A stretch of 64,000 bases of DNA from a virus, in IMG/VR virus record IMGVR_UViG_3300027833_000021, positions 1 through 64,000 of that record, one strand, 5' to 3'. Both the position numbers and the translations under genes were made by a program. Below are positions 4,958 through 53,217 of this stretch, in pieces. The notes beneath the pieces are model-generated. The model did not search any database. It saw only the letters and a program-made list of their open reading frames with translations, and was not told the origin of the DNA. Within the stretch, counting starts at the first letter, position 1. Each line of letters starts with the position of its first letter.

Positions 4958-5251
4958 TTAGTAACCGTAAGTTTCGTCATTGTTTCTGATAACAGAAGAC
5001 GCCGCATCTGTAATAGCACCAAAGTCCTGTGTGTCAACTTTAACACCAGTAATTGCTCCTAATTCAGTATAGCCACGTGTTCTACCAGTTGAACCTAACG
5101 CCGCAGAACTATGTCCTGCGCCTCTAGTTGGTAAATCATCACCGCTTGATGTAATCGCACCAAAGTCGCCCATCTCTCTTAAATCGATAGTACGTCTAAC
5201 TTTAATACGAGCCATTCCAGCGACTGCTCTTAAACCTCTATATCTTGCCAT
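4958..5251 (-). CDS. Small minus-strand virion-type protein with GAIT repeats
   Basis: Unrecognised, 97 aa. The ATG at 5251 follows GGGAG at good spacing, so it is preferred over the longer frame. The N-terminus is basic (MARYRGLRAVAGMARIKVRR). The rest carries three copies of a short motif: GDFGAIT, ELGAIT and QDFGAIT. The same DYGAIT motif closes the fibre protein ending at 41460. The gene has its own late box and its own terminator, so it is an independent late unit inserted against the grain between genes 16 and 17. Probably a virion component; the exact role is unknown. Confidence 0.75.
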   Translation of the reverse strand: MARYRGLRAVAGMARIKVRRTIDLREMGDFGAITSSGDDLPTRGAGHSSAALGSTGRTRGYTELGAITGVKVDTQDFGAITDAASSVIRNNDETYGY

Positions 5252-5304
5252 TTTTATTTCTCCCATGTAATGATGTCGAAGGTGGGAATCCCCCAATCAT
5301 CAAT

Positions 5305-5314
5305 AGTATTTATC
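5305..5314 (-). promoter_or_regulatory. Late promoter box for the minus-strand gene
   Basis: The minus strand reads GATAAATACT here, 54 bases upstream of the ATG at 5251. It stands back-to-back with the plus-strand box at 5346, making a divergent late promoter pair 31 bases apart. Confidence 0.7.
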
Positions 5315-5345
5315 ACATATGCCATTTTATTAAGTTCTAACGAAT

Positions 5346-5354
5346 GATAAATAC
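5346..5354 (+). promoter_or_regulatory. Late promoter box GATAAATAC upstream of gene 17
   Basis: Exact copy of the window's late nonamer, 24 bases before the terminase large subunit start. Confidence 0.75.
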
Positions 5355-5377
5355 TATTATAATTAAGTGAGTATATA

Positions 5378-6937
5378 ATGGCAGATTTAACTAAAAAACC
5401 ATACGCAAAAACACAATTTAGTAATGCACAACTATTAGAATTCAGTAAGTGCATGAATGACCCATTCTATTTTTTGAATCATTACTTTATGATTCAGCAT
5501 CCTACAGAAGGTCAAATGTTGTATAAAGCATATGATTATCAAACCGAGTTGACAAATTCATATCACAATTATAGATTTTCTATATCTATGTTGGGCAGAC
5601 AGATGGGTAAGTCAACAACTGCTGGTGGATATCTATTGTGGTATGCAATGTTCAATCCAGACCAAACAATTCTAATTGCGGCACACAAATATTCTGGTGC
5701 CCAAGAAATTATGCACAGAATTAGATATGCATATGAGATGTGTCCAGATTTTATTCGTGCAGGTGTAACAAACTATAACAAAGGTAGTATTGAATTTGAT
5801 AATGGTTCCCGTATCATTGCTCAAGCAACAACAGAAAATACTGGTCGTGGTCTTTCAATCTCATTGCTATACGCAGATGAGTTTGCATTTGTGCGACCAT
5901 CAATTGCGAAAGAATTTTGGACTTCTATATCTCCAACACTAGCAACAGGTGGTAAAGCGATTATCACATCAACACCAAACAATGATGATGACCAGTTTGC
6001 TATGATTTGGTCAGGCGCTAACAAGAGATTAGATGACTACGGAAATGAAACAGAAGTTGGTATTAATGGCTTTAAACCATACAAAGCATTATGGCATCAG
6101 CATCCAGACAGAGATAAACAATGGTCAGTTGAAGAAGAAGCACGTGTTGGTAAAGAACGTTTCTTAAGAGAACATGAATGTCAGTTTATTGCTTATGATG
6201 AAACACTAGTAGATAGTCTGAAGTTAGCAGGAATTAAAGGCAGAGAGCCAATCCTGAGAACAGGACAGATTAGATGGTATGAGAATATAAACAAAGATGC
6301 CACATATGTTATAGGTTTAGACCCATCAATGGGAACAGGTGGTGATAATGCCGCTATTCAAGTATGGGCATTGCCAGAATTAGTACAAGTTGCAGAATGG
6401 CAGAATAATAGAACAGATGTGAGAGGGCAAGTACAAACGATGCACACCGTTCTTACTATCATTAAAGATGAGATGAGAGAACTAGGAAATACTAGTCCTG
6501 ATATTTATTGGTCAGTAGAGAACAACTCATTAGGTGAAGCCGCTCTTATCGTTATTGAAGAAATGGAAGAAGACAGATTTCCCGGTACATTCTTACATGA
6601 ACCTAAGAAGAAAGGTAGACAACGAGTTTCCAGAAAAGGTTTCACCACAACTTATAAAACAAAAATTACGGCTTGTATGAAGATGAAATCTTGGCTTGAA
6701 AGTGATAAGATGGTGCCAACAAGTAAAAACTTCATAAGAGAGTTGAAAACATTCATAGCAAAGGGTAAAAGTTATGAAGCAAAAACTGGTGAAACAGACG
6801 ATTTAGTTTCAGCAACCCTTTTATGTGTTCGTCAAATACAATTCATCTCAAGGTTTGAAGAGGGCTATGAAGAGATGCTTGGTGAGAGTTTAGATGGTGA
6901 AGCAGAATATAACGAACCACTTCCTATCATATTTTGA
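5378..6937 (+). CDS. 17: Terminase large subunit gp17 (packaging ATPase/nuclease)
   Basis: The 519-residue protein has both gp17 domains. ATPase: Walker A GRQMGKST (73-80) and Walker B LLYADEFA with catalytic DE at 167-168, followed by the coupling motif ITSTPN (196-201). Nuclease of RNase H fold: VIGLDPSMGTGGD with D315, then the VENNSLGEA and ETDDLVSATLL acidic motifs near the C-terminus. It powers DNA translocation into the prohead and cuts concatemers. It is shorter than T4 gp17 (610), as in other marine relatives. The next late box overlaps its stop codon. Confidence 0.95.
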   Translation: MADLTKKPYAKTQFSNAQLLEFSKCMNDPFYFLNHYFMIQHPTEGQMLYKAYDYQTELTNSYHNYRFSISMLGRQMGKSTTAGGYLLWYAMFNPDQTILIAAHKYSGAQEIMHRIRYAYEMCPDFIRAGVTNYNKGSIEFDNGSRIIAQATTENTGRGLSISLLYADEFAFVRPSIAKEFWTSISPTLATGGKAIITSTPNNDDDQFAMIWSGANKRLDDYGNETEVGINGFKPYKALWHQHPDRDKQWSVEEEARVGKERFLREHECQFIAYDETLVDSLKLAGIKGREPILRTGQIRWYENINKDATYVIGLDPSMGTGGDNAAIQVWALPELVQVAEWQNNRTDVRGQVQTMHTVLTIIKDEMRELGNTSPDIYWSVENNSLGEAALIVIEEMEEDRFPGTFLHEPKKKGRQRVSRKGFTTTYKTKITACMKMKSWLESDKMVPTSKNFIRELKTFIAKGKSYEAKTGETDDLVSATLLCVRQIQFISRFEEGYEEMLGESLDGEAEYNEPLPIIF

Positions 6938-15957: not shown

Positions 15958-16119
15958 ATGAATATGAATTTTCGAGCATGGCTACAAAATGTTTGGTTTG
16001 AACATAAAGACGAAAAGTCGGCATGGAATGAAACAGTTGATTATACGATAGATGAATGGATTAGCAAGAACTTAAAGTTTCTAACTAACCGATACAAGAC
16101 TGAGATTAAATCAAAATGA
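15958..16119 (+). CDS. 53-aa protein, unknown function
   Basis: Short gene with AAAGGAG seven bases before ATG 15958. The product begins MNMNFRAWLQNVWFEHKDEK and ends with a basic amphipathic helix. Its stop overlaps the ATG of the next gene (ATGA), which supports it being real and coupled. It is rich in aromatic residues but has no membrane segment. Function unknown. Confidence 0.65.
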   Translation: MNMNFRAWLQNVWFEHKDEKSAWNETVDYTIDEWISKNLKFLTNRYKTEIKSK

Positions 16120-16895
16120 AAATAGTCTTAGCAACAGGTGGATTTGACCCGATACATTCTGGTCATATTTCCTATCTTAAAGCCGCTAGAGAATTGGGCG
16201 ACATGCTCATTGTTGGCTTAAACTCAGATGAATGGTTAGAACGCAAAAAGGGTAAATCTTTTATGCCTTGGAATGAACGTCTAACAATTCTCAATAACTT
16301 ACAAATGGTAGATGAAGTCTTCACCTTTATGGATGACGATGACACTGCTATCAATTTCATTAAACAAGTTATTGCACATTATCCAAATGACCAAATAGTC
16401 TTCGCCAATGGCGGCGACAGAAAAAAAGGCAATACGCCTGAAGTAGAATTTGCAACATCTATTGCAGATATTTCACCTGGATTTGGTTTTATATGGGGTG
16501 TTGGCGGTAATGAAAAGAAAAATTCAAGTAGTTGGATATTAGAAGAGTGGAAAGCACCAAAAACAATTCGCAGTTGGGGATGGTATAGAGTACTAGACGA
16601 TAAGCCAGGATATAAAGTCAAAGAATTGATTATTACTCCAGGACAAAGCCTAAGTATGCAACGACATCAACTTAGAGCAGAACATTGGTATATTCTCAAA
16701 GGAGAATGTTCGTTTAATACAATAAATGTTTCTTCTGACATAGAAGAACTAGGCACTTATACAGAAAATAAGTCTATCACAATTGAAAAGAAACAATGGC
16801 ACCAAGCCTGTAACGTTACGAATGAACCTTGTCATATTTTAGAAGTACAATATGGCGAAAAATGTGAAGAACAAGATATTGAACGGTTGGAATGA
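16116..16895 (+). CDS. Cytidylyltransferase-like domain fused to a mannose-6-P isomerase-type cupin
   Basis: 259 aa in two parts. Residues 1-140 are a nucleotidyltransferase of the HxGH class: GGFDPIHSGHISYLKAA with H14 and H17, the family of glycerol-3-phosphate cytidylyltransferase and HldE C-domain. Residues about 148-255 form a cupin like the C-terminal domain of type II phosphomannose isomerases (RSWGWYRVLDD, ITPGQSLSMQRHQLRAEHWYIL). The pairing suggests synthesis of an activated sugar or polyol phosphate, for host envelope change or glycosylation. The substrate cannot be told. The typical ISSTRI-like motif of the transferase is not obvious, so specificity or activity is uncertain. Confidence 0.75.
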   Translation: MKIVLATGGFDPIHSGHISYLKAARELGDMLIVGLNSDEWLERKKGKSFMPWNERLTILNNLQMVDEVFTFMDDDDTAINFIKQVIAHYPNDQIVFANGGDRKKGNTPEVEFATSIADISPGFGFIWGVGGNEKKNSSSWILEEWKAPKTIRSWGWYRVLDDKPGYKVKELIITPGQSLSMQRHQLRAEHWYILKGECSFNTINVSSDIEELGTYTENKSITIEKKQWHQACNVTNEPCHILEVQYGEKCEEQDIERLE

Positions 16896-18783: not shown

Positions 18784-19008
18784 ATGATGGGAATAGACAT
18801 GATATTTGTGACGGGTGCTTTTATTAGTATCTGTGCATATTTTAGTTATAGAAGCGGAGAGAAAGACGGTTATCAACAGATGGCACGTGAAGTTGCATCA
18901 TCAATAGTTGAAATACATATGGAGCAACAAAAAATCGAAGTAATGAAACTCGAAGTTGAACAAATAAAAAGAGAATGCCTACAATTAATGGAAGAAAACC
19001 AAACATGA
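18784..19008 (+). CDS. Small membrane-anchored coiled-coil protein, 74 aa
   Basis: One N-terminal membrane segment ([17 protein letters not shown]) and then a charged helix with heptad character up to the end. Strong AGAGGAG site. Its TGA overlaps the prs ATG, so it is coupled to prs. Function unknown. Confidence 0.65.
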
Positions 19009-19955
19009 AGATTATATCTGGTAATAGTAATTTAAAACTAGCAGAAGAAATAGCATCACATTGTTTTGCTACTCTAGTTCCTGCTGAAATCAAAGCATTT
19101 GCAGATGGTGAAAGTAGTGTAGAGTTCTTAGAGAATGTTCGAGGCGAAGATGTCTTTATTGTACAGAGTACAAGTACTCCAGTAAACGACAATCTGATGG
19201 AAATGCTAGTAATGATTGATGCCGCTAAAAGAAGTAGTGCTAAACGTATTACAGCAGTCATACCTTACTTCGGTTATGCACGACAAGATAGAAAAAGTGC
19301 AAGTCGTACACCAATTACTGCAAAACTAGTAGCAAATCTAGTAACAGAAGCCGGTGCAGATAGAGTTTTAACAATGGACTTACATGCTGGACAAATCCAA
19401 GGCTTCTTTGATATTCCAGTTGATGATTTGACAAGTCGTATTGTATTTGCTAAAGATATTAAGAGACGATTAGGTGATAAAGCCTATAAAAATACAGTAT
19501 TCGTTTCACCTGATGCAGGTGGTACTATGAGAGCCCGTAAATTTGCTGAAATGTTTCATGGTGATATTGCTATCGTAGATAAACGTAGACCTAAAGCAGG
19601 TCAAAGTGAAGTAATGAACATTATTGGAGAAGTTGAAGGTCAACATGCGATATTAGTTGATGATATTATCGATAGTGGTGGAACATTATGTAATGCCGCA
19701 CAGGCTATTATGGATGCAGGTGCATTAAGTGTACGAGCATACATCACTCATGGAGTTTTGACTGGTGAAGCATGTCAAAAAGTGGAAAAGAGTGTGTTAG
19801 AAGAATTAGTCATTACAGATAGTATAGAATTTCGTTGTCCTAGCAATTTAAAGAAGACACGACAAGTTAGTGTTTCGAAATTGTTCGGTGAAGCAATTCG
19901 TAGAGTAAGTAATGAAGAAAGTGTAAGTTCACTATTTTATAATCAGAAAGTATAA
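19005..19955 (+). CDS. prs: Ribose-phosphate pyrophosphokinase (PRPP synthase)
   Basis: 316 aa from ATG 19005 (ATGA overlap), the normal Prs length; the longer frame from 18975 is not needed. Recognisable parts are the [20 protein letters not shown] start (split here as FADGE and VRGEDVF), [11 protein letters not shown] for [20 protein letters not shown], and the PRPP loop [12 protein letters not shown]. It makes PRPP from ribose-5-phosphate and ATP, feeding nucleotide or NAD synthesis. In the window a phosphoribosyltransferase at 25924 could use PRPP. A nadV partner, known from some vibriophages, is not seen here. Confidence 0.95.
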
Positions 19956-25637: not shown

Positions 25638-25927
25638 ACCCAGATGATTTGATGATAACATTAGATTCAGATAGCGATGATAGTGGTTACACATCACCCA
25701 CTACAATAACACTTGATGATAATTATTGGACTGATATGGTAACGGATACAAGAGACCAAGAAGCATTCAAATCAATAAATGACAGACTGTCAACTATTGA
25801 AAGTCGCTTATCAATTCTTAAACCAGACGCAGAGATGTTATCAAAATATGAAGTATTACAAGATATTTACAAACAATACAAGGCGGCAGAAGCATTGCTT
25901 TCTGGACCAGATGCGGAGACAGAATGA
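25634..25927 (+). CDS. Small acidic coiled-coil protein, 97 aa
   Basis: Unrecognised. Asp/Ser-rich N-terminus (LDSDSDDSGYT) and a helical C-terminal half with heptad spacing (INDRLSTIESRLSIL). Both ends overlap neighbours by ATGA, so it is one step in a coupled string of small genes. Confidence 0.6.
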   Translation: MNPDDLMITLDSDSDDSGYTSPTTITLDDNYWTDMVTDTRDQEAFKSINDRLSTIESRLSILKPDAEMLSKYEVLQDIYKQYKAAEALLSGPDAETE

Positions 25928-26418
25928 AAAATACTAGAGAATATACTTGGCAAGGAGTAGAAGAGGCAGTTAATTCAATTGCTATGCAAATGTTTAAAGA
26001 TGAATGGCGACCAGATTACATTGTTGGTATAACTCGTGGTGGTTTAGTGCCAGCAGTTCTTCTTTCACATGCTACTGATATTCCAATGAAAACATTATGC
26101 GTTCAATTAGAATCAGATGGGTTAGAAGCAAATACTGAACGAAATGCCATCATGGCTAAACATGCATTAAAAGAATATAAGAAAATTCTTATCATTGATG
26201 ATATCAATCGAGGCGGCGATGCACTACAATGGATTCAAAATGATTGGCAAGATGCTATGGGTTTCTCAGGTGACTACACGCCAGAACAATGGCATACAAA
26301 TGTAAGATTTGCTTCACTAATTGATAACCCTAATTCAAAAGTTCCTATGGACTACTGTAACGAAGAAATTGATTTAGATGATGAAGAACTCTGGGTGGAG
26401 TTTCCGTGGGAGAGTTAA
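25924..26418 (+). CDS. Type I phosphoribosyltransferase
   Basis: 164 aa. IVGITRGGLVPAVLLSHATD is the N-terminal phosphate/hood strand motif of Gpt-like PRTases, and ILIIDDINRGGDAL stands at the PRPP loop, where the family has VDDxxDTG(K/R)T. The ring from D-T-G to N-R-G is a departure, so substrate or activity may differ. The C-terminus DDEELWVEFPWES is typical of xanthine-guanine type enzymes. It would salvage a base with PRPP, and the phage carries its own PRPP synthase. Confidence 0.75.
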   Translation: MKNTREYTWQGVEEAVNSIAMQMFKDEWRPDYIVGITRGGLVPAVLLSHATDIPMKTLCVQLESDGLEANTERNAIMAKHALKEYKKILIIDDINRGGDALQWIQNDWQDAMGFSGDYTPEQWHTNVRFASLIDNPNSKVPMDYCNEEIDLDDEELWVEFPWES

Positions 26419-30342: not shown

Positions 30343-31764
30343 ATGTCAGAAGTCAAAAACTACTCACCAGACTTACAAAGATTATTTGTTCAATTTATGT
30401 TGACAGATCCGCAGTTGTTTACTAGAGTGATGGGCATAATTGATGAACGCCACTTTGATAGACCAAGCCGTGATATTGTGGGATATCTAATCAATTATAG
30501 TGAAGAATATTCTACTATGCCATCTGTTGAACAAATAAAAGCAGAGACCGGCCAAGAGATAGAATTACTAGAAGATATAGTAAAGCATAGTGACTGGTTT
30601 GTAGATGAGTTTGAAACATTCTGTAGACACAAAGCAATTGAACGAGCAATCGTTAATAGTGCTGATTTACTTGAAGAAGGTAAATATGGTGAAGTAGAAA
30701 CAACAATTAAAGATGCAGTTCAGATAGGTTTAGCAAGGTCTTTAGGTACTGATTATTTCCATGACCCGAGAGCAAGACTTGAAATGCTCAAAGATAACAA
30801 TGGACAAATTACTACAGGTTGGAAGGACTTAGATGATAAACTTTACGGTGGTATTAATCGAGGTGAAGTAACTATCTTTGCCGGTGGTTCTGGTTCTGGT
30901 AAATCTTTGTTCATGCAAAATATGAGTTTGAACTGGGCAGAAGCAGGAATGAATTGTGTATATCTTACTTTAGAATTATCTGAAGAATTATCAGCAATGC
31001 GTATCGATGCGATGGCAACTGACAAGAGTACTAGACGTATCTTTAAAGAACTAGATGATGTTGAGTTGAAAGTTAAGACTATCGGTAAAAAGTCTGGTAT
31101 GCTTAGAATTAAATATATGTCCTCGGGTTCAACAATCAATGATGTTCGTGCTTATCTAAAAGAACTTCAAATTGTAACAGGCAAAACAGTTGATTGTATT
31201 TGTATTGACTACTTAGATTTGTTAATGCCTGCTACTAAGAAAGTAAATCCAGGTGACTTGTTTATTAAAGACAAATATGTCACAGAAGAAATTCGTAACT
31301 TTGCAATGGAATCACAGACAGTTGTAGTGACTGCATCCCAGTTAAATCGTTCAGCAGTAGAAGAAGTAGAATTTGACCACTCTCATATTGCTGGTGGTAT
31401 CTCTAAAATTCAAACTGCTGATAATGTTATTGGTATCTTTACTAGTAATGCAATGAGAGAACGTGGCCAATATCAATTACAATTATTGAAAACAAGAAGT
31501 TCTAGCGGTGTTGGTTCCAAGATAAATCTAGTATTTGACAGAGATAGTTTACGAATTAGTAATTCAGACTTAGAAGATGATGATTTAGCAGTTAGTTCAA
31601 ATGATTCTCAAACTGCAAAAATAATGGATAAATTAAAGAATTCAACTACAGTAACAAAGTCGAATGATACAGATTCTGCTATCCCACCAGAAAAAACAGA
31701 GTCCGCAATGAGTCTCCGAGCAATGGTTAAGTCTAAAAAGGCTAGTCCATTTGATGATAATTGA
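30343..31764 (+). CDS. 41: Replicative DNA helicase gp41 (DnaB-like)
   Basis: 473 aa. N-terminal helical domain (1-150), then a RecA-like core with Walker A in FAGGSGSGKSLFMQ, the glutamate in YLTLELSEE, Walker B in CICIDYLDLL, and VVVTASQLNRSA. LLKTRSSSG near the C-terminus is the arginine-finger region. It unwinds the fork as a hexamer with gp61. The C-terminal tail (LEDDDLAVSS...) is polar. The following late box overlaps its stop. Confidence 0.95.
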   Translation: MSEVKNYSPDLQRLFVQFMLTDPQLFTRVMGIIDERHFDRPSRDIVGYLINYSEEYSTMPSVEQIKAETGQEIELLEDIVKHSDWFVDEFETFCRHKAIERAIVNSADLLEEGKYGEVETTIKDAVQIGLARSLGTDYFHDPRARLEMLKDNNGQITTGWKDLDDKLYGGINRGEVTIFAGGSGSGKSLFMQNMSLNWAEAGMNCVYLTLELSEELSAMRIDAMATDKSTRRIFKELDDVELKVKTIGKKSGMLRIKYMSSGSTINDVRAYLKELQIVTGKTVDCICIDYLDLLMPATKKVNPGDLFIKDKYVTEEIRNFAMESQTVVVTASQLNRSAVEEVEFDHSHIAGGISKIQTADNVIGIFTSNAMRERGQYQLQLLKTRSSSGVGSKINLVFDRDSLRISNSDLEDDDLAVSSNDSQTAKIMDKLKNSTTVTKSNDTDSAIPPEKTESAMSLRAMVKSKKASPFDDN

Positions 31765-31789: not shown

Positions 31790-32053
31790 ATGACTAGTAA
31801 GAAACCACGTAGAAGTCTGTTCGAAGAGTTAAACTCTATGGCGATTTCTAAAAATGAACCAGAGAGATTTGTCGAACAAAAAGGCGAACATATTATTTCT
31901 GGCGCAATTAACTTAATTGAATTCATTCACCGTGAATTCGATAATGATATTGCTGTGGACTTAACAAAACGTCTTGTTAATAGCATTCGTACTGGCGACA
32001 TGAGAAAATTCAAAAGAGGAATAACTCATGCGAAACGAAAAGATGAATCTTAA
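31790..32053 (+). CDS. Small conserved-type protein, 87 aa
   Basis: SLFEELNSMAISKNEPERFVEQKGEHIISGAINLIEF can be split into helices; a third is DLTKRLVNSIRTGDMRKFKRGI. It is a helical, basic protein of a kind I recall from marine T4-like phages, unnamed. TAGGAG lies before the ATG. Overlaps the next gene by 26 bases. Confidence 0.65.
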   Translation: MTSKKPRRSLFEELNSMAISKNEPERFVEQKGEHIISGAINLIEFIHREFDNDIAVDLTKRLVNSIRTGDMRKFKRGITHAKRKDES

Positions 32054-32262: not shown

Positions 32263-33471
32263 ATGAAAGTTAGAGACATATTAGGCGCAGGCTTAGAAAG
32301 AAGATTTAGAGGTCCAAGAAAACCTCGTAATAAACAAATTGGTTTTCATCAGAAGATGAAGAAACTACTGGACAAAGCACTTAATGAAGAAGGTGCTAGA
32401 ATTCAGCATTTAGAAGACTTAATTATCTGGGATGGTTCAGTCGGTGGTCAAAAAGCAATTGCAAAACTACATCAAGTAGAAACTTCTCCAAAATCAATTA
32501 GTATTAAATGGGATGGCTCACCAGCCGTTATCTTTGGTCGTAATGAGAATGGCGAATTTGTTCTTACAGACAAAAGTGGATTTGGTGCTAAAGGTTATGA
32601 TGGCAGAGTAACAAGTGCAGATGCGTTAGGTGATATGTTTAACAATCGTAAAATGCGAGACCCATCGCCAGAAAAAGTAGCAGACAAAGAAGCGTTTGTT
32701 AATAATATGAAAACTATATGGGACAAAGTTGAAAGTGTTATACCTGCGGATTTCAGAGGATACTTACACGGTGACTTGTTATGGTTCTCAACACCACAAT
32801 CAAAAGACGGTAGACTTATATTCAAGCCAAACACAACAACATATTCAGTAGATGCTAAAAGTGATATCGGTAAAAAGATAATCAACTTTGATGTAGGTAT
32901 CGTAGTTCATGTAGTGATTGACTTAGATGGCAATAAAAGCAATGTAGATATGGGCAAACTTCAAGCAGGTAAAACATGGATTATGCCTCCAGTATATGTT
33001 ACTAAATCTCCTGGTGTTGACTTACCAGAAGTAGACAGATTAGAAAGTTATTTAAAATCAAATGCAAATGCAATTGATAAGTTACTAGCAGTTCCAGCCG
33101 AATTAAAAATGGCAGACTTTGGTAACATTCTTTACACTTATATCAATAATAGTGTAAAAGCAGGCAACCTAGATAAACTAGGAAAAAATTTCAGTGAATG
33201 GGTAGAAACATCAAAACTAAGTGGACCTAAGAAAGAACGAGCAGTTCAGTGGGTAGAACAAAATAGTGATGGCTTTGAAGCAATCTTCCAATTCATTAAT
33301 GGTGTTATGACCACAAAGAACAAAATTATTAAAACGTTAGATTCTCAACCAGCAGATATCGAAGCCAGTACAAATGGCGAAAGAGGTGGAGAAGGCTATG
33401 TGATAGATAAAGATGTGAAACTGGTAAATAGAGCAGGGTTCACAGCGGCAAACATGAGGCAAGAGAGATAA
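32263..33471 (+). CDS. Nucleotidyltransferase-like protein (DUF6267-type), 402 aa
   Basis: ATG 32263 is preferred over GTG 32236. I place it with the DUF6267 phage proteins. The order of motifs looks like the covalent nucleotidyltransferase (DNA/RNA ligase) superfamily: K82-W-D84-G85 (KWDGSPAVIFGR, motif I KxDG), GYLHGDLLWF where motif III sits, and EGYVIDKDVKLVNR near the C-terminus resembling motifs IV and V. It starts with GAGLERRFRGPRKPRN, a basic arm. If the lysine is active, it would take AMP or GMP and seal or modify a nucleic acid. The assignment is inference. Confidence 0.55.
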   Translation: MKVRDILGAGLERRFRGPRKPRNKQIGFHQKMKKLLDKALNEEGARIQHLEDLIIWDGSVGGQKAIAKLHQVETSPKSISIKWDGSPAVIFGRNENGEFVLTDKSGFGAKGYDGRVTSADALGDMFNNRKMRDPSPEKVADKEAFVNNMKTIWDKVESVIPADFRGYLHGDLLWFSTPQSKDGRLIFKPNTTTYSVDAKSDIGKKIINFDVGIVVHVVIDLDGNKSNVDMGKLQAGKTWIMPPVYVTKSPGVDLPEVDRLESYLKSNANAIDKLLAVPAELKMADFGNILYTYINNSVKAGNLDKLGKNFSEWVETSKLSGPKKERAVQWVEQNSDGFEAIFQFINGVMTTKNKIIKTLDSQPADIEASTNGERGGEGYVIDKDVKLVNRAGFTAANMRQER

Positions 33472-33671: not shown

Positions 33672-33869
33672 ATGTACAGCAAAGAGTGTAAATTGCATTT
33701 AGACGAAGCAAAGATGACACGATGGCAACATTTCAGACATGCACTTAGTATTGCTTGGAATTTAAAAAAGGCGGCAGGTGCAGTATTCATTCATGCATTT
33801 GCGCCAAGATATTTCAAATCATACGCAAGTGAAACATGTGACAGGATTGCGAAAGAGAACAAAAAATGA
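33672..33869 (+). CDS. DUF6356-type small protein, 65 aa
   Basis: HLDEAKMTRWQHFRHAL followed by AGAVFIHAFAPRYFKSYAS matches the pattern of DUF6356 phage/bacterial proteins: a helix, then a hydrophobic segment with HAF-P. GGAAGAAGTG lies before ATG 33672. Possibly membrane-associated. Function unknown. Overlaps the next ATG (AAATGA). Confidence 0.6.
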   Translation: MYSKECKLHLDEAKMTRWQHFRHALSIAWNLKKAAGAVFIHAFAPRYFKSYASETCDRIAKENKK

Positions 33870-34621
33870 GTAAATTAAAACTTGTAAATACTTTATCAGA
33901 AAGTAGATTATTCAGAACAAAACAAATGGCTGGCAGTGTCAAAATTGATGATGCCGCAGAATTAGTTTTTGTTCATTTACTTATATTGAATATCTTTAAT
34001 AAAGATTATGACTTCTCTCCGTTGGCTGGTGATATAGCATCACGTACAATGTCTTATAGAAACTTTGATTACTTTAGAACTAATGGCACCGATATGTACA
34101 TGGCTCTCAATCGTTTGATGGGCAAAGATAATGATATTGGTGATAATGAAAAAGATGAAATAGCAAAGAGTAGACTTTCATTACAGAAAGCAGACGTTTT
34201 GAGATTTCTACTTCATTTCTCTAATAATAGAAGTGATGCATCTTTTGAACAAAGATACTTACTAAGATACCAAAGAAACCTTAATATACAAGATGGATTG
34301 TTAAAATCTTTACGTAGATTAGTTGGTGATTGGGATAATCTTAATCAAAATCAAAGAGCCTTGGTAGTTACAAGACTAGTACAATATATGCGTAGAAAGG
34401 CAAGACTTGCTGAAATAATGCCAGCACTTCTAAAATTACAGAAACGTGGTAATTATATGCATAAAGATAGTGATGAGGCTAAAGATACAGTCAAAAAAGT
34501 ATGGGATAACCCAATAGTTAAGGCTGGTGCCGCAATTGCAGGCTATAAGGCAGTACAATCACTAGGTAGAAGATTAGGTGCTACTACGTACACTACTGAT
34601 AGAAAACTTCGTAAGTTTTAA
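33866..34621 (+). CDS. Helical hypothetical protein, 251 aa, probably virion-related
   Basis: Unrecognised. Mainly helical; basic (RYLLRYQRNLN, LVQYMRRKARLAEIM). A hydrophobic glycine/alanine stretch IVKAGAAIAGYKAVQSLG near the C-terminus is too short for a clear membrane span. It shares the late unit with the DUF6356-type gene. Confidence 0.65.
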   Translation: MSKLKLVNTLSESRLFRTKQMAGSVKIDDAAELVFVHLLILNIFNKDYDFSPLAGDIASRTMSYRNFDYFRTNGTDMYMALNRLMGKDNDIGDNEKDEIAKSRLSLQKADVLRFLLHFSNNRSDASFEQRYLLRYQRNLNIQDGLLKSLRRLVGDWDNLNQNQRALVVTRLVQYMRRKARLAEIMPALLKLQKRGNYMHKDSDEAKDTVKKVWDNPIVKAGAAIAGYKAVQSLGRRLGATTYTTDRKLRKF

Positions 34622-35335: not shown

Positions 35336-38300
35336 ATGGCTGATATTAAAAACTTTGGTATCCGTGGTATAGGTGCTGATGTTCAGTTCGGTAAGTCGGG
35401 CGGTCGTGTTGTATATGATTCAGGTAATTCCCTGTTCAAAGTAACAACTGACGGTACTACTTTAGGTAACATGAATGTTGCAACTCCAACTTCGGACAAC
35501 CATGCGGCAAACAAGAGTTATGTTGACTCAATCGCTTCTGGACTTGATGTTAAACAATCAGTTCGTGCGGCTTCAACAGCAGATGTAACTCTAAGTGGAC
35601 CGGGCGCAACAATCGATGGCGTAACTATGTCATCAGGTGACCGTGTTCTACTAAAAAACCAGTCGGCAGCGGCTGAAAATGGTATCTATCTATGGACAGG
35701 TGCGGCGTCAGCAATGACACGTGCAACTGATATGGACGGTGCCGCTGAATTTGTTGGCGCTTTTTTCTTTGTTGAAGAAGGTACAATAAACTCAGACCAA
35801 GGCTTTGTATGTTCAACTAACGGTACAATTACTGTTGATACAACTGCAATCGCCTTTACACAATTCACAGGTACTGGTCAGTTAACAGCAGGTAATGGTT
35901 TATCTAAATCAGGTAACACATTCAATATTAACGTTGACGATACATTTGTGGAAATTAATGGTTCAGATGAACTAACTATTAGAGGTACTTCGACTACTGG
36001 TCAAGCACTACTTTCAGACGGTTCAAATGGTGTAACATATGGTGCAGTTAACTTAACTTCTTCAAGTGCAGTTACTGGTGCTTTACCATTAACAAACGGC
36101 GGTTTAGGTGTTGATGCATCTGATTCATCAGGCAAAACTACAGCACGTTCAAACTTAGGTTTGGGCTCAATGGCTACTCAGAACTCTGGTTCTGTTGCTA
36201 TTACAGGCGGTTCAATTGATATTTCTGGTGGTACATTAACTCTAGCAAATGACCAAATCTCTGGTAACTCAATTTCTGGTGGTACAATTGACTCAGCGAA
36301 CCTTTCAGGTGGCGCAGGCAAGACTATCTCTGGTTTCGATGTAACAATCGCGGCTGGTAAAACATTAGACGTTGACGGTGCAGTAGATATCGATGCTTCA
36401 AGTGGTAACATGGATGGCGTTGCTATCGGTGGTACAACTTCAGCGGCTGGTACATTTACAACTATGGCTTCTGACTCAGTAGATATTAATGGTGGTGCTG
36501 TTGACGGTACAACTATTGGTGCTAACGTGGCAGCGGCAGGTACATTTACAAACGTAGATGCTACTGGTACAATCAAAACTAATACACTAGACAACTATGA
36601 TGGCACAAACATTACTGTTTCTGCTCCATTGGATGTTACTGGTGATATTACTGTAACTGGTCAAGTCTCTGCGACTACCGGTATGGTTACAGACACAATT
36701 GCTGAATTAACTGGTAATGCTGGTGTAACTGTTGATAGTGTTGTACTTAAAGACGGTGTTGTAACTGGTGATTTAACTGGTGATGTAACTGGTGATGTAA
36801 CTGGTAACTTAACAGGTAACTCTGCTGGTGTTCATACAGGTAATGTAACTGGTAACTTAACTGGTAACAGTGCAGGTGTTCATACAGGCGCAGTAACTGG
36901 TAATGTAACTGGTGATGTAACTGGTAACTTAACAGGTAACTCTGCTGGTGTTCATACAGGTAATGTAACTGGTAATGTAACTGGTGATGTAACTGGTGAT
37001 GTAGCAGGTGATGTAACTTCAACTGGAACTTCAACGTTTGCAACTGTTGACGTTAACGGCGGTGCAGTAGATGGAACAGTAATTGGTGCTAACACATCAG
37101 CGGCTGGTACTTTCTCAACAATGACAACAGCAGATGCGGCTATAACAGGCGGTGCTATTTCAGGAACAAGTATTGACCTTTCAGGACAAACTTTGACATT
37201 GACTTCGGACTCTGTGTCTGGTGATTCAGTTCATGGTGGTACTATTTCTAACTTCGCATCAACTGGTATTGACGATAATGCATCATCAACAGCATTGACA
37301 ATCGATTCAAGTCAAAATGCTACATTTGGTTCAGACTTAACAGTTACTGGTGACTTAACAGTTAACGGTTCTGTAACTTCAATCTCTTCAACTAACACTA
37401 CTATCGAAGACAACACAATTGTTTTAAACAATGGTGAGTCTGGTGCTGGTGTAACTGAAGGTTCAGCAGGTATTTCTATCGACCGTGGTACAGCGGATGA
37501 TGCACTTATCAACTGGAATGAGACAACAGATGAGTTCGAACTAAAAGTTGGTGCTTCATATGGTGACTTAAAAGTTTCAGCACTTACAGGTGATGTAACT
37601 GGTGCCCTAACTGGTAACGTAACAGGTAATGTAACTGGTAATGTAACAGGTAATGTAACTGGTGATTTAACAGGTGATGTAACTGGTGATTTAACTGGTG
37701 ACGTAACAGGTAATGTAACTGGTAATACTGCTGGTGTTCATACTGGTAATGTAACTGGTAACGTAACAGGTAACGTAACTGGTGATTTAACTGGTGACTC
37801 TGCTGGTACACATACTGGTGCAGTTGTTGGTAACGTAACAGGTAACGTAACTGGTGATTTAACTGGTGATGTAACTGGTGATGTAACTGGTGATGTAACT
37901 GGTGATTTAACAGGTAACTCTGCTGGTACACATACTGGTGCGGTTGTTGGTAATGTAACTGGTAACTTAACAGGTAACGTAACAGGTAATGTTTCTGGCA
38001 ATGCTGGAACAGTAACTAACGGTGTTTATACAACTGACACTGGAACAGTAACTAACACAATGTTAGCAGGTTCAATTGGTAATGCTAAATTATCAAATAG
38101 TTCATTTACTGTTGGTTCAACTGCGATTAACCTTGGTGATACAACGACAAGTCTTGCAGGCTTATCTTCAGTAACATCAACGGCATTCGTAGGTGATTTA
38201 ACTGGTGACGTAACTGGTGATACTGCTGGTACTCATACTGGTGCAGTAACTGGTAACGTAACTGGTAACATTACTTCAGCAGGTACAAGTACATTTACAG

Positions 38301-40405
38301 ACGTTGACGTTAACGGCGGTGTTATTGATGGAACAACTATTGGTGCAACATCATCAGCGGCTGGTACATTCTCAACATTGGCATCTGCTTCAGCGACATT
38401 AACTGGTGGTACTGCTACTGGCATGACAACAGTTACAGCGACTAACCTAAACTCAGGTAACGTTGGTATTACTGGTGGTTCTATTTCAGGAACATCAATC
38501 GACTTATCAGGTCAAACCCTAACTCTAGGTAATGACTCAGTTTCAGGTGACTCAATCCACGGTGGTACTATTTCTAACGCTTCATTGGCCGGTGACGCTA
38601 CCGACACAATGACTGGTTATGATATTACTGTTGGTGCGGGACGTGAATTAGACGTATCTTCGGGTACTCTAACACTAGGTGCTAACCAGATTTCTGGTGA
38701 TAAAGTACACGGTGGCACAATCTCTGATTTTGCTTCAACTGGTATCGATGATAACGCTACATCAACTAAAGTAACTCTATCTGATACAACTGCAACATTT
38801 GGTGTTGCTGGTGACTTCGGTTCTAACGACCTAGACGCCGGTGCTTCAACACTTGGTTCGCTTTCTGTAACAGGTAATGCTTCAATTACTGGTAACTTGA
38901 CAGTTTCTGGTTCAGTAACTACAACTTTATCTGAGATTGTAAATATCGAAGATAACAACATTGTTCTTAACTCAAACGCAACTGGTTCGGCTACTGCTGA
39001 TGCTGGTATTACGATTGAGCGTGGTGATGATGATAATGCTGTTGTTCTCTGGAACGAAACTTCAAATGCATTCGAACTTACTGTAGGCGCGGCTAAGGCT
39101 GACCTAACAGTTAATGATTTGACTGTAAATGAGATGACACTAGCAACTGACCTTGCGGCAAGCATGGGTGGTACGGGTACTGATACTTCAGCATTCGCGG
39201 CTTCATCTATCATGTTAAACAGTGGTTCAGGTACAGTAACAGAATTGGCGAAAGGTGCTAACTCAACTGTATTAAAAGTTGGTTCAACTGGTACTCTAGG
39301 TTATGCAAAAGTCGATTTGACTGCTGACGTAACTGGTACAATGCCAATAGCAAATGGTGGTACAGGTATCACTTCAGCAGGTTCTGATAATAAAGTTATG
39401 ACTTCAGACGGTTCTGCATTAGGTATGGAATATGTACAACATGTACGTAATTCAACTGGTGTAGTTGCGTTAGACGGTTCTGGCGTTACTTCAGGTTCTG
39501 GTGAATATATCGCAATTACTAACGCTACTGGTAAAGTAACACTAACAGCCAAAAATGCGGCGGCATCTGGTGCTGTAGATATGTATCTACAAGGCCAAGG
39601 TGGCGGTGACGTATTTATTGTTGGTCAATCTGGCGAAGCCTTAATTCAAGGTGAAAACGATACAGACCTAACAGTTGCTGGTGGTGATGCTTCTGGCGGT
39701 GATGCTGGTGACTTAATCATCAAAGGTGGTAACGGTACAGGCGGTAACGCCTCTGGTGCAGTTGTCATTAAAGGTGGTAACGGTGGTGCATCAGACGGAA
39801 ACGTTCAAATTAAAGGTGCAGATGATACAGCAATCGCTACTTTCGTAGAGACTGCCTCAGCAACTGACTCTTTAACAGTAACTAACGGAACTGGCGGTGT
39901 AGAACTAGCAATGTCTGGTGGCACAAACGTCAACATGAACTTAGCACCAAAAGGCGCAGGTATTATTCTTGCACCAAATGGCTATGACATGTCTTCAGCG
40001 GCAGACCACGCCCTAGCAACTAAAGAATATGTAGATGACAAAGCGTCAACTTCAGGTTCTTCTGGTACTAGACGTGTTGAGTTTACTGCTAACGGTTCTT
40101 CATCATTTACAATCGGCACAATGGCTAACATTTCAGGAAAAACTTATTACATTAAGCGTATCACTGCAAAAGTTACTACTGCGTTTGTTGGTTGTGATGA
40201 ATTAGTCGTTTCTGACGGTACAAATACTCTAATGTCTGCAAGTGAGGCTGACCTTTCTGAAGGCGGTTTATATATTGTTGATTTAGGTTTTGACGATGCT
40301 ACAACAGGCGGCGCAACTATTACTGGTACTTTACAGAATGGCGGCTCATCTGCTTCACCTACAACTGGTGTTATAATTGTTACTGCGGAATACAAGCAAC
40401 TCTAA
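35336..40405 (+). CDS. Giant repeat tail fibre protein, 1689 aa
   Basis: N-terminal 200 residues (KNFGIRGIGADVQFGKSGG, TPTSDNHAANKSYVDSIASG, VLLKNQ..AENGIYLW) are those of fibre proteins of marine myoviruses. The rest is made of beta-repeat modules: two long blocks of TGxVTG hexapeptides (residues about 476-562 and 751-889), repeated SxxGTxIDLSGQTLTL and GGAVDGTxIGANxxAAGTF units, and two copies of a IEDNxIVLNxx...WNETxxEFELxVGA module. The C-terminus (TRRVEFTANGSSSF onwards) may be the receptor tip. It should form a trimeric fibre. RBS AGGAG. Terminated at 40452. Confidence 0.85.
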   Translation: MADIKNFGIRGIGADVQFGKSGGRVVYDSGNSLFKVTTDGTTLGNMNVATPTSDNHAANKSYVDSIASGLDVKQSVRAASTADVTLSGPGATIDGVTMSSGDRVLLKNQSAAAENGIYLWTGAASAMTRATDMDGAAEFVGAFFFVEEGTINSDQGFVCSTNGTITVDTTAIAFTQFTGTGQLTAGNGLSKSGNTFNINVDDTFVEINGSDELTIRGTSTTGQALLSDGSNGVTYGAVNLTSSSAVTGALPLTNGGLGVDASDSSGKTTARSNLGLGSMATQNSGSVAITGGSIDISGGTLTLANDQISGNSISGGTIDSANLSGGAGKTISGFDVTIAAGKTLDVDGAVDIDASSGNMDGVAIGGTTSAAGTFTTMASDSVDINGGAVDGTTIGANVAAAGTFTNVDATGTIKTNTLDNYDGTNITVSAPLDVTGDITVTGQVSATTGMVTDTIAELTGNAGVTVDSVVLKDGVVTGDLTGDVTGDVTGNLTGNSAGVHTGNVTGNLTGNSAGVHTGAVTGNVTGDVTGNLTGNSAGVHTGNVTGNVTGDVTGDVAGDVTSTGTSTFATVDVNGGAVDGTVIGANTSAAGTFSTMTTADAAITGGAISGTSIDLSGQTLTLTSDSVSGDSVHGGTISNFASTGIDDNASSTALTIDSSQNATFGSDLTVTGDLTVNGSVTSISSTNTTIEDNTIVLNNGESGAGVTEGSAGISIDRGTADDALINWNETTDEFELKVGASYGDLKVSALTGDVTGALTGNVTGNVTGNVTGNVTGDLTGDVTGDLTGDVTGNVTGNTAGVHTGNVTGNVTGNVTGDLTGDSAGTHTGAVVGNVTGNVTGDLTGDVTGDVTGDVTGDLTGNSAGTHTGAVVGNVTGNLTGNVTGNVSGNAGTVTNGVYTTDTGTVTNTMLAGSIGNAKLSNSSFTVGSTAINLGDTTTSLAGLSSVTSTAFVGDLTGDVTGDTAGTHTGAVTGNVTGNITSAGTSTFTDVDVNGGVIDGTTIGATSSAAGTFSTLASASATLTGGTATGMTTVTATNLNSGNVGITGGSISGTSIDLSGQTLTLGNDSVSGDSIHGGTISNASLAGDATDTMTGYDITVGAGRELDVSSGTLTLGANQISGDKVHGGTISDFASTGIDDNATSTKVTLSDTTATFGVAGDFGSNDLDAGASTLGSLSVTGNASITGNLTVSGSVTTTLSEIVNIEDNNIVLNSNATGSATADAGITIERGDDDNAVVLWNETSNAFELTVGAAKADLTVNDLTVNEMTLATDLAASMGGTGTDTSAFAASSIMLNSGSGTVTELAKGANSTVLKVGSTGTLGYAKVDLTADVTGTMPIANGGTGITSAGSDNKVMTSDGSALGMEYVQHVRNSTGVVALDGSGVTSGSGEYIAITNATGKVTLTAKNAAASGAVDMYLQGQGGGDVFIVGQSGEALIQGENDTDLTVAGGDASGGDAGDLIIKGGNGTGGNASGAVVIKGGNGGASDGNVQIKGADDTAIATFVETASATDSLTVTNGTGGVELAMSGGTNVNMNLAPKGAGIILAPNGYDMSSAADHALATKEYVDDKASTSGSSGTRRVEFTANGSSSFTIGTMANISGKTYYIKRITAKVTTAFVGCDELVVSDGTNTLMSASEADLSEGGLYIVDLGFDDATTGGATITGTLQNGGSSASPTTGVIIVTAEYKQL
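36761..37020 (+). repeat. Tandem repeat block A in the fibre gene
   Basis: The 12-base unit GTAACTGGTRAY and its variants (GTAACAGGTAAY, TTAACTGGTGAT) are repeated without break, with three copies of an SAGVHTG insert. Third-base variation between copies shows the array is not a recent pure expansion. Confidence 0.85.
37586..38002 (+). repeat. Tandem repeat block B in the fibre gene
   Basis: A longer array of the same TGxVTG-coding 12-base unit, including runs of identical copies (TGATGTAACTGG repeated), interrupted by SAGTHTGAVVG and NTAGVHTG inserts. Confidence 0.85.
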
Positions 40406-52503: not shown

Positions 52504-53217
52504 ATGAGAGTAAATGAAATAATTGGTAGTATTGAAGAAGGTGTCGATGACCCTCATATCTTTAAAGCAGTGTTTATGGCTGGTGGACCAGGAAGTGGCA
52601 AAAGTCGTATCGCAGGTTCGCCTATTCTAAAAGGTGGTGGTCTAAGACCTATCAACTCAGATGATGTCTACGAATACAAGATGAAAAAAGCAGGATTAGA
52701 TTATGGTGACCCAGATGTTATCTATTCTGACCAAGGCCAAGAAATTCGTGGTAAAGCAAAAGAAGTTACTGCTAAAAGAGAGCAGATGTACTTAGATGGC
52801 AGATTAGGTGTTATTATTGACGGAACAGGAAGAGATGTTAATAAGATATCAACATCCGTAGAAAAACTAACACAAATGGGCTATTCATGTATGATGGTTT
52901 TTGTGAATACAAGTTTAGACATTGCACAAGAAAGAAACTTGAATAGAAAAAGAACTCTAAAGCCAGAAGAAGTCGAAAGAATGTGGAACGAGGTTCAAAA
53001 CAATATGATGAAGTTTCAACAGTTGTTTGGTAAAGGAAAGTTTCAAATCGTTGACAACAACGGTGGATTAGAAGACCCAGAAAGAAAGAAAAACTTTGAC
53101 AAAGTTCAGAAGAATGTTACTGCATTTCTAAATCGACCACCTTCAAATCCTCATGCGAAAAAATGGATGCAAAATCAAAGACGATTGAAGAATGCACAAA
53201 ATCAACAAGAAAAATAG
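52504..53217 (+). CDS. P-loop kinase of the zeta-toxin/polynucleotide kinase type
   Basis: 237 aa. FKAVFMAGGPGSGKSRIAGSP contains Walker A (GGPGSGKS). GRLGVIIDGTGRD follows as a Walker-B-like strand, and ERNLNRKRTLKPEEVERMW a lid helix with arginines. These are features of zeta-toxin and AAA_33 kinases that phosphorylate small molecules or polynucleotide ends. The N-terminus MRVNEIIGSIEEG resembles other late N-terminal peptides here (IEE|G). The lysine-rich C-terminus may bind nucleic acid. Late box upstream. Confidence 0.75.
   Translation: MRVNEIIGSIEEGVDDPHIFKAVFMAGGPGSGKSRIAGSPILKGGGLRPINSDDVYEYKMKKAGLDYGDPDVIYSDQGQEIRGKAKEVTAKREQMYLDGRLGVIIDGTGRDVNKISTSVEKLTQMGYSCMMVFVNTSLDIAQERNLNRKRTLKPEEVERMWNEVQNNMMKFQQLFGKGKFQIVDNNGGLEDPERKKNFDKVQKNVTAFLNRPPSNPHAKKWMQNQRRLKNAQNQQEK

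What the first reader, a model, noticed from the sequence alone, without database searches (positions are those of the whole stretch)
32263..33471. Possible new nucleotidyltransferase/ligase branch in a DUF6267-type protein
KWDG, HGDLLWF and EGYVI...VKLV appear in the order of motifs I, III and IV/V of covalent nucleotidyltransferases. The protein is otherwise unlike T4 DNA ligase or Rnl1/Rnl2. If true it would give a function to a widespread unknown phage family, such as RNA repair.
Basis: inference. Interest (0 to 1): 0.55.

Follow-up and report, generated by a model that had tools for sequence, protein, structure and literature searches.

The report
Hidden RNA-ligase-like enzyme in ocean phages
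A protein of unknown function in T4-like phages of ocean bacteria has the fold and the conserved active-site residues of enzymes that join RNA or DNA ends, and in some relatives it sits beside other predicted RNA-repair enzymes, so a common gene without a function gets a testable one.

Summary
KWDG (K82), HGDLLWF (D171) and EGYVI...VKLV (E377, K386) lie in this order in a 402-aa DUF6267 protein and are nearly invariant in 95 representatives under 70% identical (the KWDG column is partly selected by the search). Two confident AlphaFold2 models (pLDDT 90.6 and 92.2) resemble covalent nucleotidyltransferases: all 50 listed rows in each second look are DNA/RNA ligases, best Naegleria RNA ligase (Z 8.3) and T4 Rnl1 (Z 8.0). 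Direct sequence comparison with T4 ligases finds nothing. A bridging family in jumbo phages, in the same place between a DnaB-like helicase and a second conserved gene, links DUF6267 (P 1.2e-6) to Rnl1 (P 0.0018). Relatives lie beside, or are fused to, HIGH-type nucleotidyltransferases, and in one clade beside a polynucleotide-kinase-like kinase and a Pol-beta-like nucleotidyltransferase. The window's phage has that kinase 19 kb away. Best reading: a divergent Rnl1-like ligase branch, probably for RNA end repair. Covalent nucleotidyltransferase about 0.9; RNA ligase about 0.55. The shared pocket was not measured and no activity is shown.

The parts
32263..33471 (+). DUF6267 protein, 402 aa: predicted covalent nucleotidyltransferase (RNA-ligase-like)
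   Evidence: model pLDDT 90.6; all 50 VIA rows ligases
32407..32418 (+). H49-L-E51-D52, conserved N-terminal signature before motif I
   Evidence: H49 93/93, E51 93/93, D52 87/93 (partly selected by search patterns)
32506..32517 (+). motif I, K82-W-D-G, predicted nucleotide-accepting lysine
   Evidence: K82, D84, G85 each 95/95
32557..32583 (+). motif Ia-like strand and turn, F99-V-L-T-D-K104-S-G-F107
   Evidence: K104 92/95, F99 94/95; aligned with the T4 Rnl1 KSKGS region through the bridge
32767..32787 (+). motif III, H169-G-D171-L-L-W-F
   Evidence: D171 94/95; strand 166-174
32821..32844 (+). F187-K-P189-N190-T-T-T-Y194, equivalent of Rnl1 PxNRIVxxY
   Evidence: P189 94/95, N190 91/95, Y194 95/95
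32893..32919 (+). motif IIIa-like strand, V211-G-I-V-V-H216-V-V-I219
   Evidence: H216 95/95; strand 211-219; the label IIIa is by topology only
33022..33345 (+). helical insertion, about residues 254-361, with invariant K352
   Evidence: DSSP of the model; K352 93/93; much shorter in the 298-aa form
33391..33405 (+). motif IV, E377-G-Y-V-I
   Evidence: E377, G378 93/93
33415..33456 (+). motif V, V385-K386-L-V-N-R390 ... F393 ... N397-M398
   Evidence: K386 92/93, R390 92/93
33866..34621 (+). helical partner family 'FRT' (FRTNGTDxY); fused to DUF6267 in locus L156
   Evidence: fusion; downstream of DUF6267 in 17 of 75 non-redundant loci
30343..31764 (+). DnaB-like replicative helicase (gp41 type), upstream neighbour
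   Evidence: PHROG 2.8e-72
52504..53217 (+). P-loop kinase of the family that follows DUF6267 in other phages
   Evidence: A8 profile E 3.5e-68 in a search of this one protein; PF13671; Zeta_toxin scores higher than AAA_33, so its substrate is open

Best explanation
DUF6267 is a highly diverged, OB-less branch of the covalent nucleotidyltransferases, nearest to the Rnl1-type RNA ligases. Proposed steps: K82 attacks the alpha phosphate of a nucleotide donor (probably ATP) to form lysyl-NMP; D84, D171, E377, K386 and probably R390 and K352 hold ribose, metal and phosphates; the NMP then passes to a 5'-phosphate end, which is sealed to a 3'-OH. Most likely it rejoins RNA, probably tRNA, cut by host defence nucleases, with a polynucleotide-kinase-like enzyme and in some phages a Pol-beta-like nucleotidyltransferase to prepare the ends. 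Shown by computation: motifs, conservation, fold similarity, sequence bridge, gene neighbours. Inferred: lysyl-NMP chemistry, donor, RNA as substrate, tRNA repair.
For: Conservation of K82/D84/G85/D171/E377/G378/K386 over 95 representatives. Models with pLDDT 90.6 and 92.2; VIA lists contain only ligases, best 6vt1 Z 8.3 over 173 residues at 3.9 A and T4 Rnl1 2c5u Z 8.0 over 155 at 3.6 A. The first 13 Foldseek rows for the short form are ligases or capping enzymes by title (E 0.12-0.63, none significant alone). DUF6267 against the jumbo-phage nucleotidyltransferases: prob 90.9, P 1.2e-6, score 52.9 against a best of 23.1 in 100 column shuffles; those against T4 Rnl1: P 0.0018, score 32.6 against 26.5 in 60 shuffles. 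Two of the three bridge proteins match Pfam RNA_ligase weakly (E 0.002, 0.085). The bridge gene lies between DnaB and FRT, the place of DUF6267 in the window. Kinase and Pol-beta-like genes follow DUF6267 in one clade, 24 of 204 loci each. The window's phage has the same kinase family.
Against: No direct sequence similarity to T4 Rnl1, Rnl2 or DNA ligase (probabilities 0.3-0.7%; at most 0.35%). VIA Z of about 8 is in the range that models without a clear match can reach (note). Motif III has D, not E, and motif V keeps only the first of the two lysines of Rnl1 (KLV against KIK). Kinase and Pol-beta genes are in a minority of loci (7 of 72 non-redundant each), and the Pol-beta family has no match in the window's record. 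The commonest neighbour is a HIGH-type nucleotidyltransferase (42 of 75), which is no classical RNA-repair part. The window kinase scores better as Zeta_toxin (3.2e-11) than as AAA_33 (1.2e-9). The third bridge protein has no Pfam match.
Confidence: 0.58

Rival explanations
1. A covalent nucleotidyltransferase that is not a polynucleotide ligase: it puts AMP (or takes it from NAD+) on a protein or small molecule, working with the fused or adjacent HIGH-type nucleotidyltransferase, possibly carried in the virion.
For: HIGH-type gene downstream in 42 of 75 non-redundant loci, fused in 4 loci; weak NMN/nicotinate-nucleotide adenylyltransferase matches of two such proteins. That neighbour was found in virions of S-SM1 (PMC3037559 section 26, read) and of S-CREM2 (PMC10665884 section 18, Table 3; in S-CREM2 the gene lies elsewhere).
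Against: Kinase and Pol-beta neighbours fit RNA repair better; closest folds are RNA ligases. DUF6267 itself is not shown to be in virions.
Confidence: 0.22
2. It is the nick-sealing DNA ligase that T4-like cyanophages seem to lack, working with the gp41 helicase encoded just upstream.
For: PMC2984593 section 12 (passage read) says no gene 30 ligase homologue was found in cyanomyoviruses and leaves 'distant homologues' open. Of 12 DUF6267-bearing genomes PF01068 is over its cut-off only in S-CRM01, PF01653 in 0 of 12. DnaB lies within 2.5 kb upstream in 42 of 80 non-redundant loci.
Against: The window's own phage and S-CRM01 have a PF01068 ligase besides DUF6267. No OB-fold follows motif V. 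The jumbo phages Atu_ph07 and Phosso, which have the bridge protein, also have an NAD+-type ligase.
Confidence: 0.12
3. A catalytically dead or structural relative that keeps the fold, for example an assembly factor like the tail-fibre role noted for T4 gp63 (Rnl1).
For: T4 rnlA is annotated as RNA ligase and tail-fibre attachment catalyst; a neighbouring small gene matches a PHROG 'virion structural protein'.
Against: Every predicted catalytic residue is kept in nearly all of 95 divergent representatives; the one clear exception is an L140 sequence that lost two of them, in a locus with two DUF6267 copies.
Confidence: 0.06

Closest known systems
T4 RNA ligase 1 (gp63, PF09511)
   Same: Fold (Z 8.0, 155 residues, 3.6 A for the short form), KxDG, EGYV, first lysine of motif V, P..N...Y stretch after motif III
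   Different: No direct profile similarity; D for E in motif III; KLV for KIK; helical insertion before motif IV
Naegleria gruberi RNA ligase (Rnl5 type; type name recalled)
   Same: Best structural match, Z 8.3, 173 residues, 3.9 A, 11% identity
   Different: About 11% identity; its N-terminal part is not matched (alignment starts at residue 143)
Unnamed RNA_ligase-like proteins of jumbo phages Atu_ph07 and Phosso and of contig IMGVR_UViG_3300017560_000013
   Same: Same place between DnaB and FRT; profile match P 1.2e-6; motif I, Ia and PNTxxY aligned together, motif IV/V as a separate weak match
   Different: E instead of D in motif III; no DUF6267 match; long C-terminal tail after motif V
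Phage RNA-repair sets (Pnkp, Rnl1/Rnl2, RlaP Pol-beta) as reviewed in PMC7824862 (passages)
   Same: Ligase-like, kinase and Pol-beta-like genes side by side in one clade
   Different: Added HIGH-type nucleotidyltransferase; no match to the RlaP family was shown
DUF6267 (PF19782) / PHROG_455
   Same: It is a member
   Different: No function assigned there

Membership tests
DUF6267 (PF19782) | profile match above the curated cut-off | tested here: met
   117.1 bits against 27
covalent nucleotidyltransferase superfamily | motif I KxDG | tested here: met
   95/95 representatives, partly selected by the search patterns
covalent nucleotidyltransferase superfamily | motif III acidic residue on a strand | tested here: met
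   D171 94/95 on strand 166-174; D instead of the usual E (usual E recalled)
covalent nucleotidyltransferase superfamily | motif IV EGxV and motif V lysine | tested here: met
   E377, G378 93/93, K386 92/93; second motif V lysine absent
covalent nucleotidyltransferase superfamily | adenylyltransferase-domain fold | tested here: met
   all 50 VIA rows are ligases for each of two models, best Z 7.8 and 8.3; these Z values alone are not decisive
covalent nucleotidyltransferase superfamily | K82, D171, E377 and K386 in one pocket | not testable with these tools
   no coordinates are returned
covalent nucleotidyltransferase superfamily | lysyl-NMP intermediate | not testable with these tools
   needs a bench assay
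Rnl1 (PF09511) | profile match | tested here: not met
   no Pfam match other than DUF6267 at E<=1; hhalign against the Rnl1 family probability 0.3%
Rnl2 / RNA_ligase (PF09414) | profile match | tested here: not met
   no match for DUF6267; only bridge proteins match, below cut-off
ATP-dependent DNA ligase (PF01068 with OB domain) | OB-fold after motif V | tested here: not met
   the chain ends with helix 390-399 some 15 residues after motif V
RNA-repair gene set | kinase and end-healing genes with the ligase | tested here: inconclusive
   7 of 72 non-redundant loci have the kinase, 7 of 72 the Pol-beta-like gene; the window's phage has the kinase elsewhere

The most novel reading that the evidence does not exclude
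DUF6267 and the jumbo-phage bridge proteins form a new RNA ligase family, nearly universal in T4-like cyanophages, that acts in a multi-enzyme repair machine (ligase, kinase, Pol-beta and HIGH-type nucleotidyltransferase). The machine may be carried in the virion, and the HIGH enzyme may recycle NMN for an NAD+-dependent lysyl-AMP step, so that host tRNA damage is mended from the first minutes of infection.
Probability: 0.1. Interest if true: 0.85.

Novelty: new variant of a known kind. Interest (0 to 1): 0.62.

Why it matters
Relatives are in 465 of 50,697 phage records, including 365 named Synechococcus, 61 Cyanophage and 24 Prochlorococcus; the helicase gp41 is found in 376 Synechococcus-named and 61 Cyanophage-named records, so the gene is close to universal in T4-like cyanophages if these are the same records (not checked record by record). 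These phages are abundant in the sea and were described as having no gene 30 ligase homologue (PMC2984593, passage read). A ligase-like active site gives a plain experiment (label the protein with radioactive ATP, mutate K82) for a gene that had no function, and points to RNA-damage defences in picocyanobacteria that these phages may need to repair.

Tried and rejected
Direct profile comparison of DUF6267 with T4 Rnl1, Rnl2 and DNA ligase, also with the helical insertion left out, gave nothing significant; likewise phmmer and hmmsearch against PDB sequences. Whole-model Foldseek matches were weak (best E 0.14; best 0.12). The bridge alignment against PDB sequences gave one insignificant match, to a DNA ligase but outside motif I. 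NCBIfam has no model for it. The idea that DUF6267 simply replaces a missing DNA ligase was weakened by PF01068 in the window's own phage and in S-CRM01. The idea that DUF6267 itself is a virion protein could not be tested: Table 3 of PMC10665884 lists none by that name, and supplements were not readable. The other jumbo phage with an FRT gene, SCTP-2, shows no KxDG protein of useful length beside it. DUF6267 in genome contigs: 35 loci, nearly all metagenome-assembled or single-cell contigs, so most likely phage contigs binned with the host (judged from titles only). Literature: no paper in the library holds 'DUF6267' or 'PF19782'; the listing for cyanophage + RNA ligase was read by title and abstract start only, and no title or abstract shown there proposes this.

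Selections behind counts: one search kept 223 of 243 profile hits (complete, with a KxDG-like motif), then 108 at <80% identity; 79 sequences went into A3 (P0001 plus 78) and 64 into A4. One search read 38 of the 80 short-form loci, because its pattern was strict. Searches used all 320 proteins of at least 280 aa found by profile; chose representatives at 70% identity by different orders (96 and 95).

Full report
What is there. The ORF at 32263-33471 (+) encodes 402 residues from an ATG. Its only Pfam match at E<=1 is DUF6267 (PF19782, 1.6e-33), and its PHROG has no function. The window is from a T4-like phage, a 115,064-base virus record: large terminase, gp32, RecA-type recombinase and ribonucleotide reductase, DnaB-like helicase and primase.

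Conservation. 320 DUF6267 proteins of at least 280 aa were found by profile in 327 loci. Among 95 representatives at <70% identity, K82, D84, G85, Y194 and H216 are kept in 95, D171 in 94; with letters in 93, E377, G378, K352 and H49 in 93, K386 and R390 in 92. The KWDG and HLED columns are partly selected, because the scans used them; the other columns were not used in those two scans. The one D171 exception, in L140, also has R for K386, and L140 holds two DUF6267 genes.

Fold. AlphaFold2 with 79 window or locus sequences gave pLDDT 90.6 and pTM 0.84. For the 298-aa short form with 64 sequences it gave 92.2 and 0.88. Foldseek against PDB gives no significant single match, but the first 13 rows for the short form are all ligases or capping enzymes by title. 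In the VIA second look all 50 listed rows are DNA or RNA ligases in both cases (for complexes such as NHEJ assemblies I take the aligned chain to be the ligase). Best: Naegleria RNA ligase Z 8.3 (173 residues, 3.9 A), T4 Rnl1 Z 8.0 (155 residues, 3.6 A), fungal Trl1 6.5, T4 Rnl2 6.4. The tool warns that Z of 7-8 can arise without kinship, so the weight lies in every row being one superfamily and in the motif residues falling in order. The residue ranges put the short form's E269 and K280 within about 2 residues of motif IV and V of both ligases (my arithmetic). I could not measure the pocket.

Sequence bridge. Profiles of DUF6267 and of the T4 Rnl1, Rnl2 and DNA ligase families do not find each other. 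In jumbo phages Atu_ph07 and Phosso the genes between DnaB and the FRT gene include a protein with KLDG, a motif III glutamate, PN[ST]xxY and EGVV, with weak RNA_ligase matches (E 0.002 and 0.085). A third was found in L401 (no Pfam match). DUF6267 against these three: probability 90.9, P 1.2e-6 (A4) and 79.8, 1.4e-5 (A3); the best of 100 column shuffles scored 23.1 against 52.9. These three against T4 Rnl1: probability 14.8, P 0.0018, score 32.6 against 26.5 for the best of 60 shuffles, with K99-EDGS, the KSKGS region, FEF and the P-x-N-R-I-V-x-x-Y stretch aligned. The second step is modest. In the three, motif V and what follows (K-x-V-D ... F ... N, looser in Atu_ph07) resembles DUF6267's KLVDR ... 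FS.ANF.

Neighbours. DnaB lies within 2.5 kb upstream in 42 of 80 non-redundant loci. Of 75 with at least 2 kb downstream, 42 have a HIGH-type nucleotidyltransferase, 17 the FRT family, none both, 16 neither. Fusions: DUF6267 with the HIGH type in L131, L134, L149 and L395, with FRT in L156. In a clade (24 of 204 loci; 7 of 72 non-redundant) a P-loop kinase follows, and a Pol-beta-like domain in equal numbers. In L145 kinase, Pol-beta-like and HIGH domains form one 913-aa frame starting 4 bases after the DUF6267 frame. The kinase resembles Zeta toxin, L-seryl-tRNA(Sec) kinase and entries titled 'Metallophosphoesterase' (I recall these as the Clostridium thermocellum Pnkp kinase domain), and a PHROG polynucleotide kinase (5.1e-7). 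All 15 Pol-beta-like members match NTP_transf_2 at E<=1 (best 1.1e-5). The window's phage has the kinase at 52504-53217 (E 3.5e-68 in a search of that one protein; PF13671), a PF01068 DNA ligase at 111502-112050, no PF09414 match and no Pol-beta-like match.

Distribution. 465 phage records encode relatives (query S-CRM01; 462 with a Melnitz query; 168 with the window's protein). In 12 DUF6267-bearing genomes besides the window's, PF01068 is over cut-off in 1, with one weak sub-threshold fragment in another; PF09414, PF01653 and PF09511 in 0 of 12 each; T4 as control has PF01068, PF09414 and PF09511. Five of the 12 are IMG/VR records that may be incomplete. Atu_ph07 and Phosso have Rnl1, RNA_ligase and NAD+-ligase matches besides the bridge protein, so it is not a stand-in for them.

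Literature seen. PMC2984593 (one passage): no gene 30 or rnh homologue in cyanomyoviruses, except one RNase H. PMC3037559 (section 26 and passages): the cytidylyltransferase T4-GC190 is in S-SM1 virions. PMC10665884 (section 18 and passages): cytidylyltransferase in the S-CREM2 virion. PMC7824862 (passages): RlaP Pol-beta enzymes act alongside RNA ligases in phages. No paper in the library holds DUF6267 or PF19782.

Judgement. Covalent nucleotidyltransferase fold and site: about 0.9. Polynucleotide ligase: about 0.7. RNA rather than DNA: about 0.55 overall. The role in tRNA repair rests on neighbours in a minority of relatives and on the Rnl1 resemblance.

Noticed in passing
window 33866-34621; L156, L392, L393, L394: An unnamed helical family (FRTNGTDxY) without a function in Pfam, shared by the window phage and jumbo phages Atu_ph07, Phosso and SCTP-2, near DnaB in three of these four and fused to DUF6267 in L156.
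   Followed up: partly
L145:6189-8927: One 913-aa frame joins a polynucleotide-kinase-like kinase, a Pol-beta-like nucleotidyltransferase and a HIGH-type nucleotidyltransferase.
   Followed up: partly
L140:2935-4137 and 4962-6041: Two DUF6267 genes in one locus; an L140 sequence has K at D171 and R at K386, perhaps an altered copy.
   Followed up: no
L395:3995-6181 (metaG-MbCM1): A DUF6267-HIGH fusion is annotated as 'NrdB ribonucleotide reductase A subunit', apparently a naming error.
   Followed up: no
L399:4992-6771 (S-PM2, AJ630128.1): The DUF6267 match is in two pieces and runs into the gene called cytitidyltransferase; another S-PM2 record (LN828717.1) gives one piece, so one record may have a frameshift.
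   Followed up: no
window 18975-19955, 25924-26418: Phosphoribosylpyrophosphate synthetase and a phosphoribosyltransferase in the same phage, possibly for nucleotide or NAD supply.
   Followed up: no
window 16116-16895: Cytidylyltransferase-like domain joined to a mannose-6-phosphate-isomerase C-terminal domain.
   Followed up: no
window 35336-40405: A 1689-aa protein rich in repeats of the type GDVTGDVTGN, probably a fibre or structural protein.
   Followed up: no
window 31790-32053: An 87-aa protein before DUF6267 matches a PHROG 'virion structural protein' (1.6e-14), although it lies in the replication cluster.
   Followed up: no
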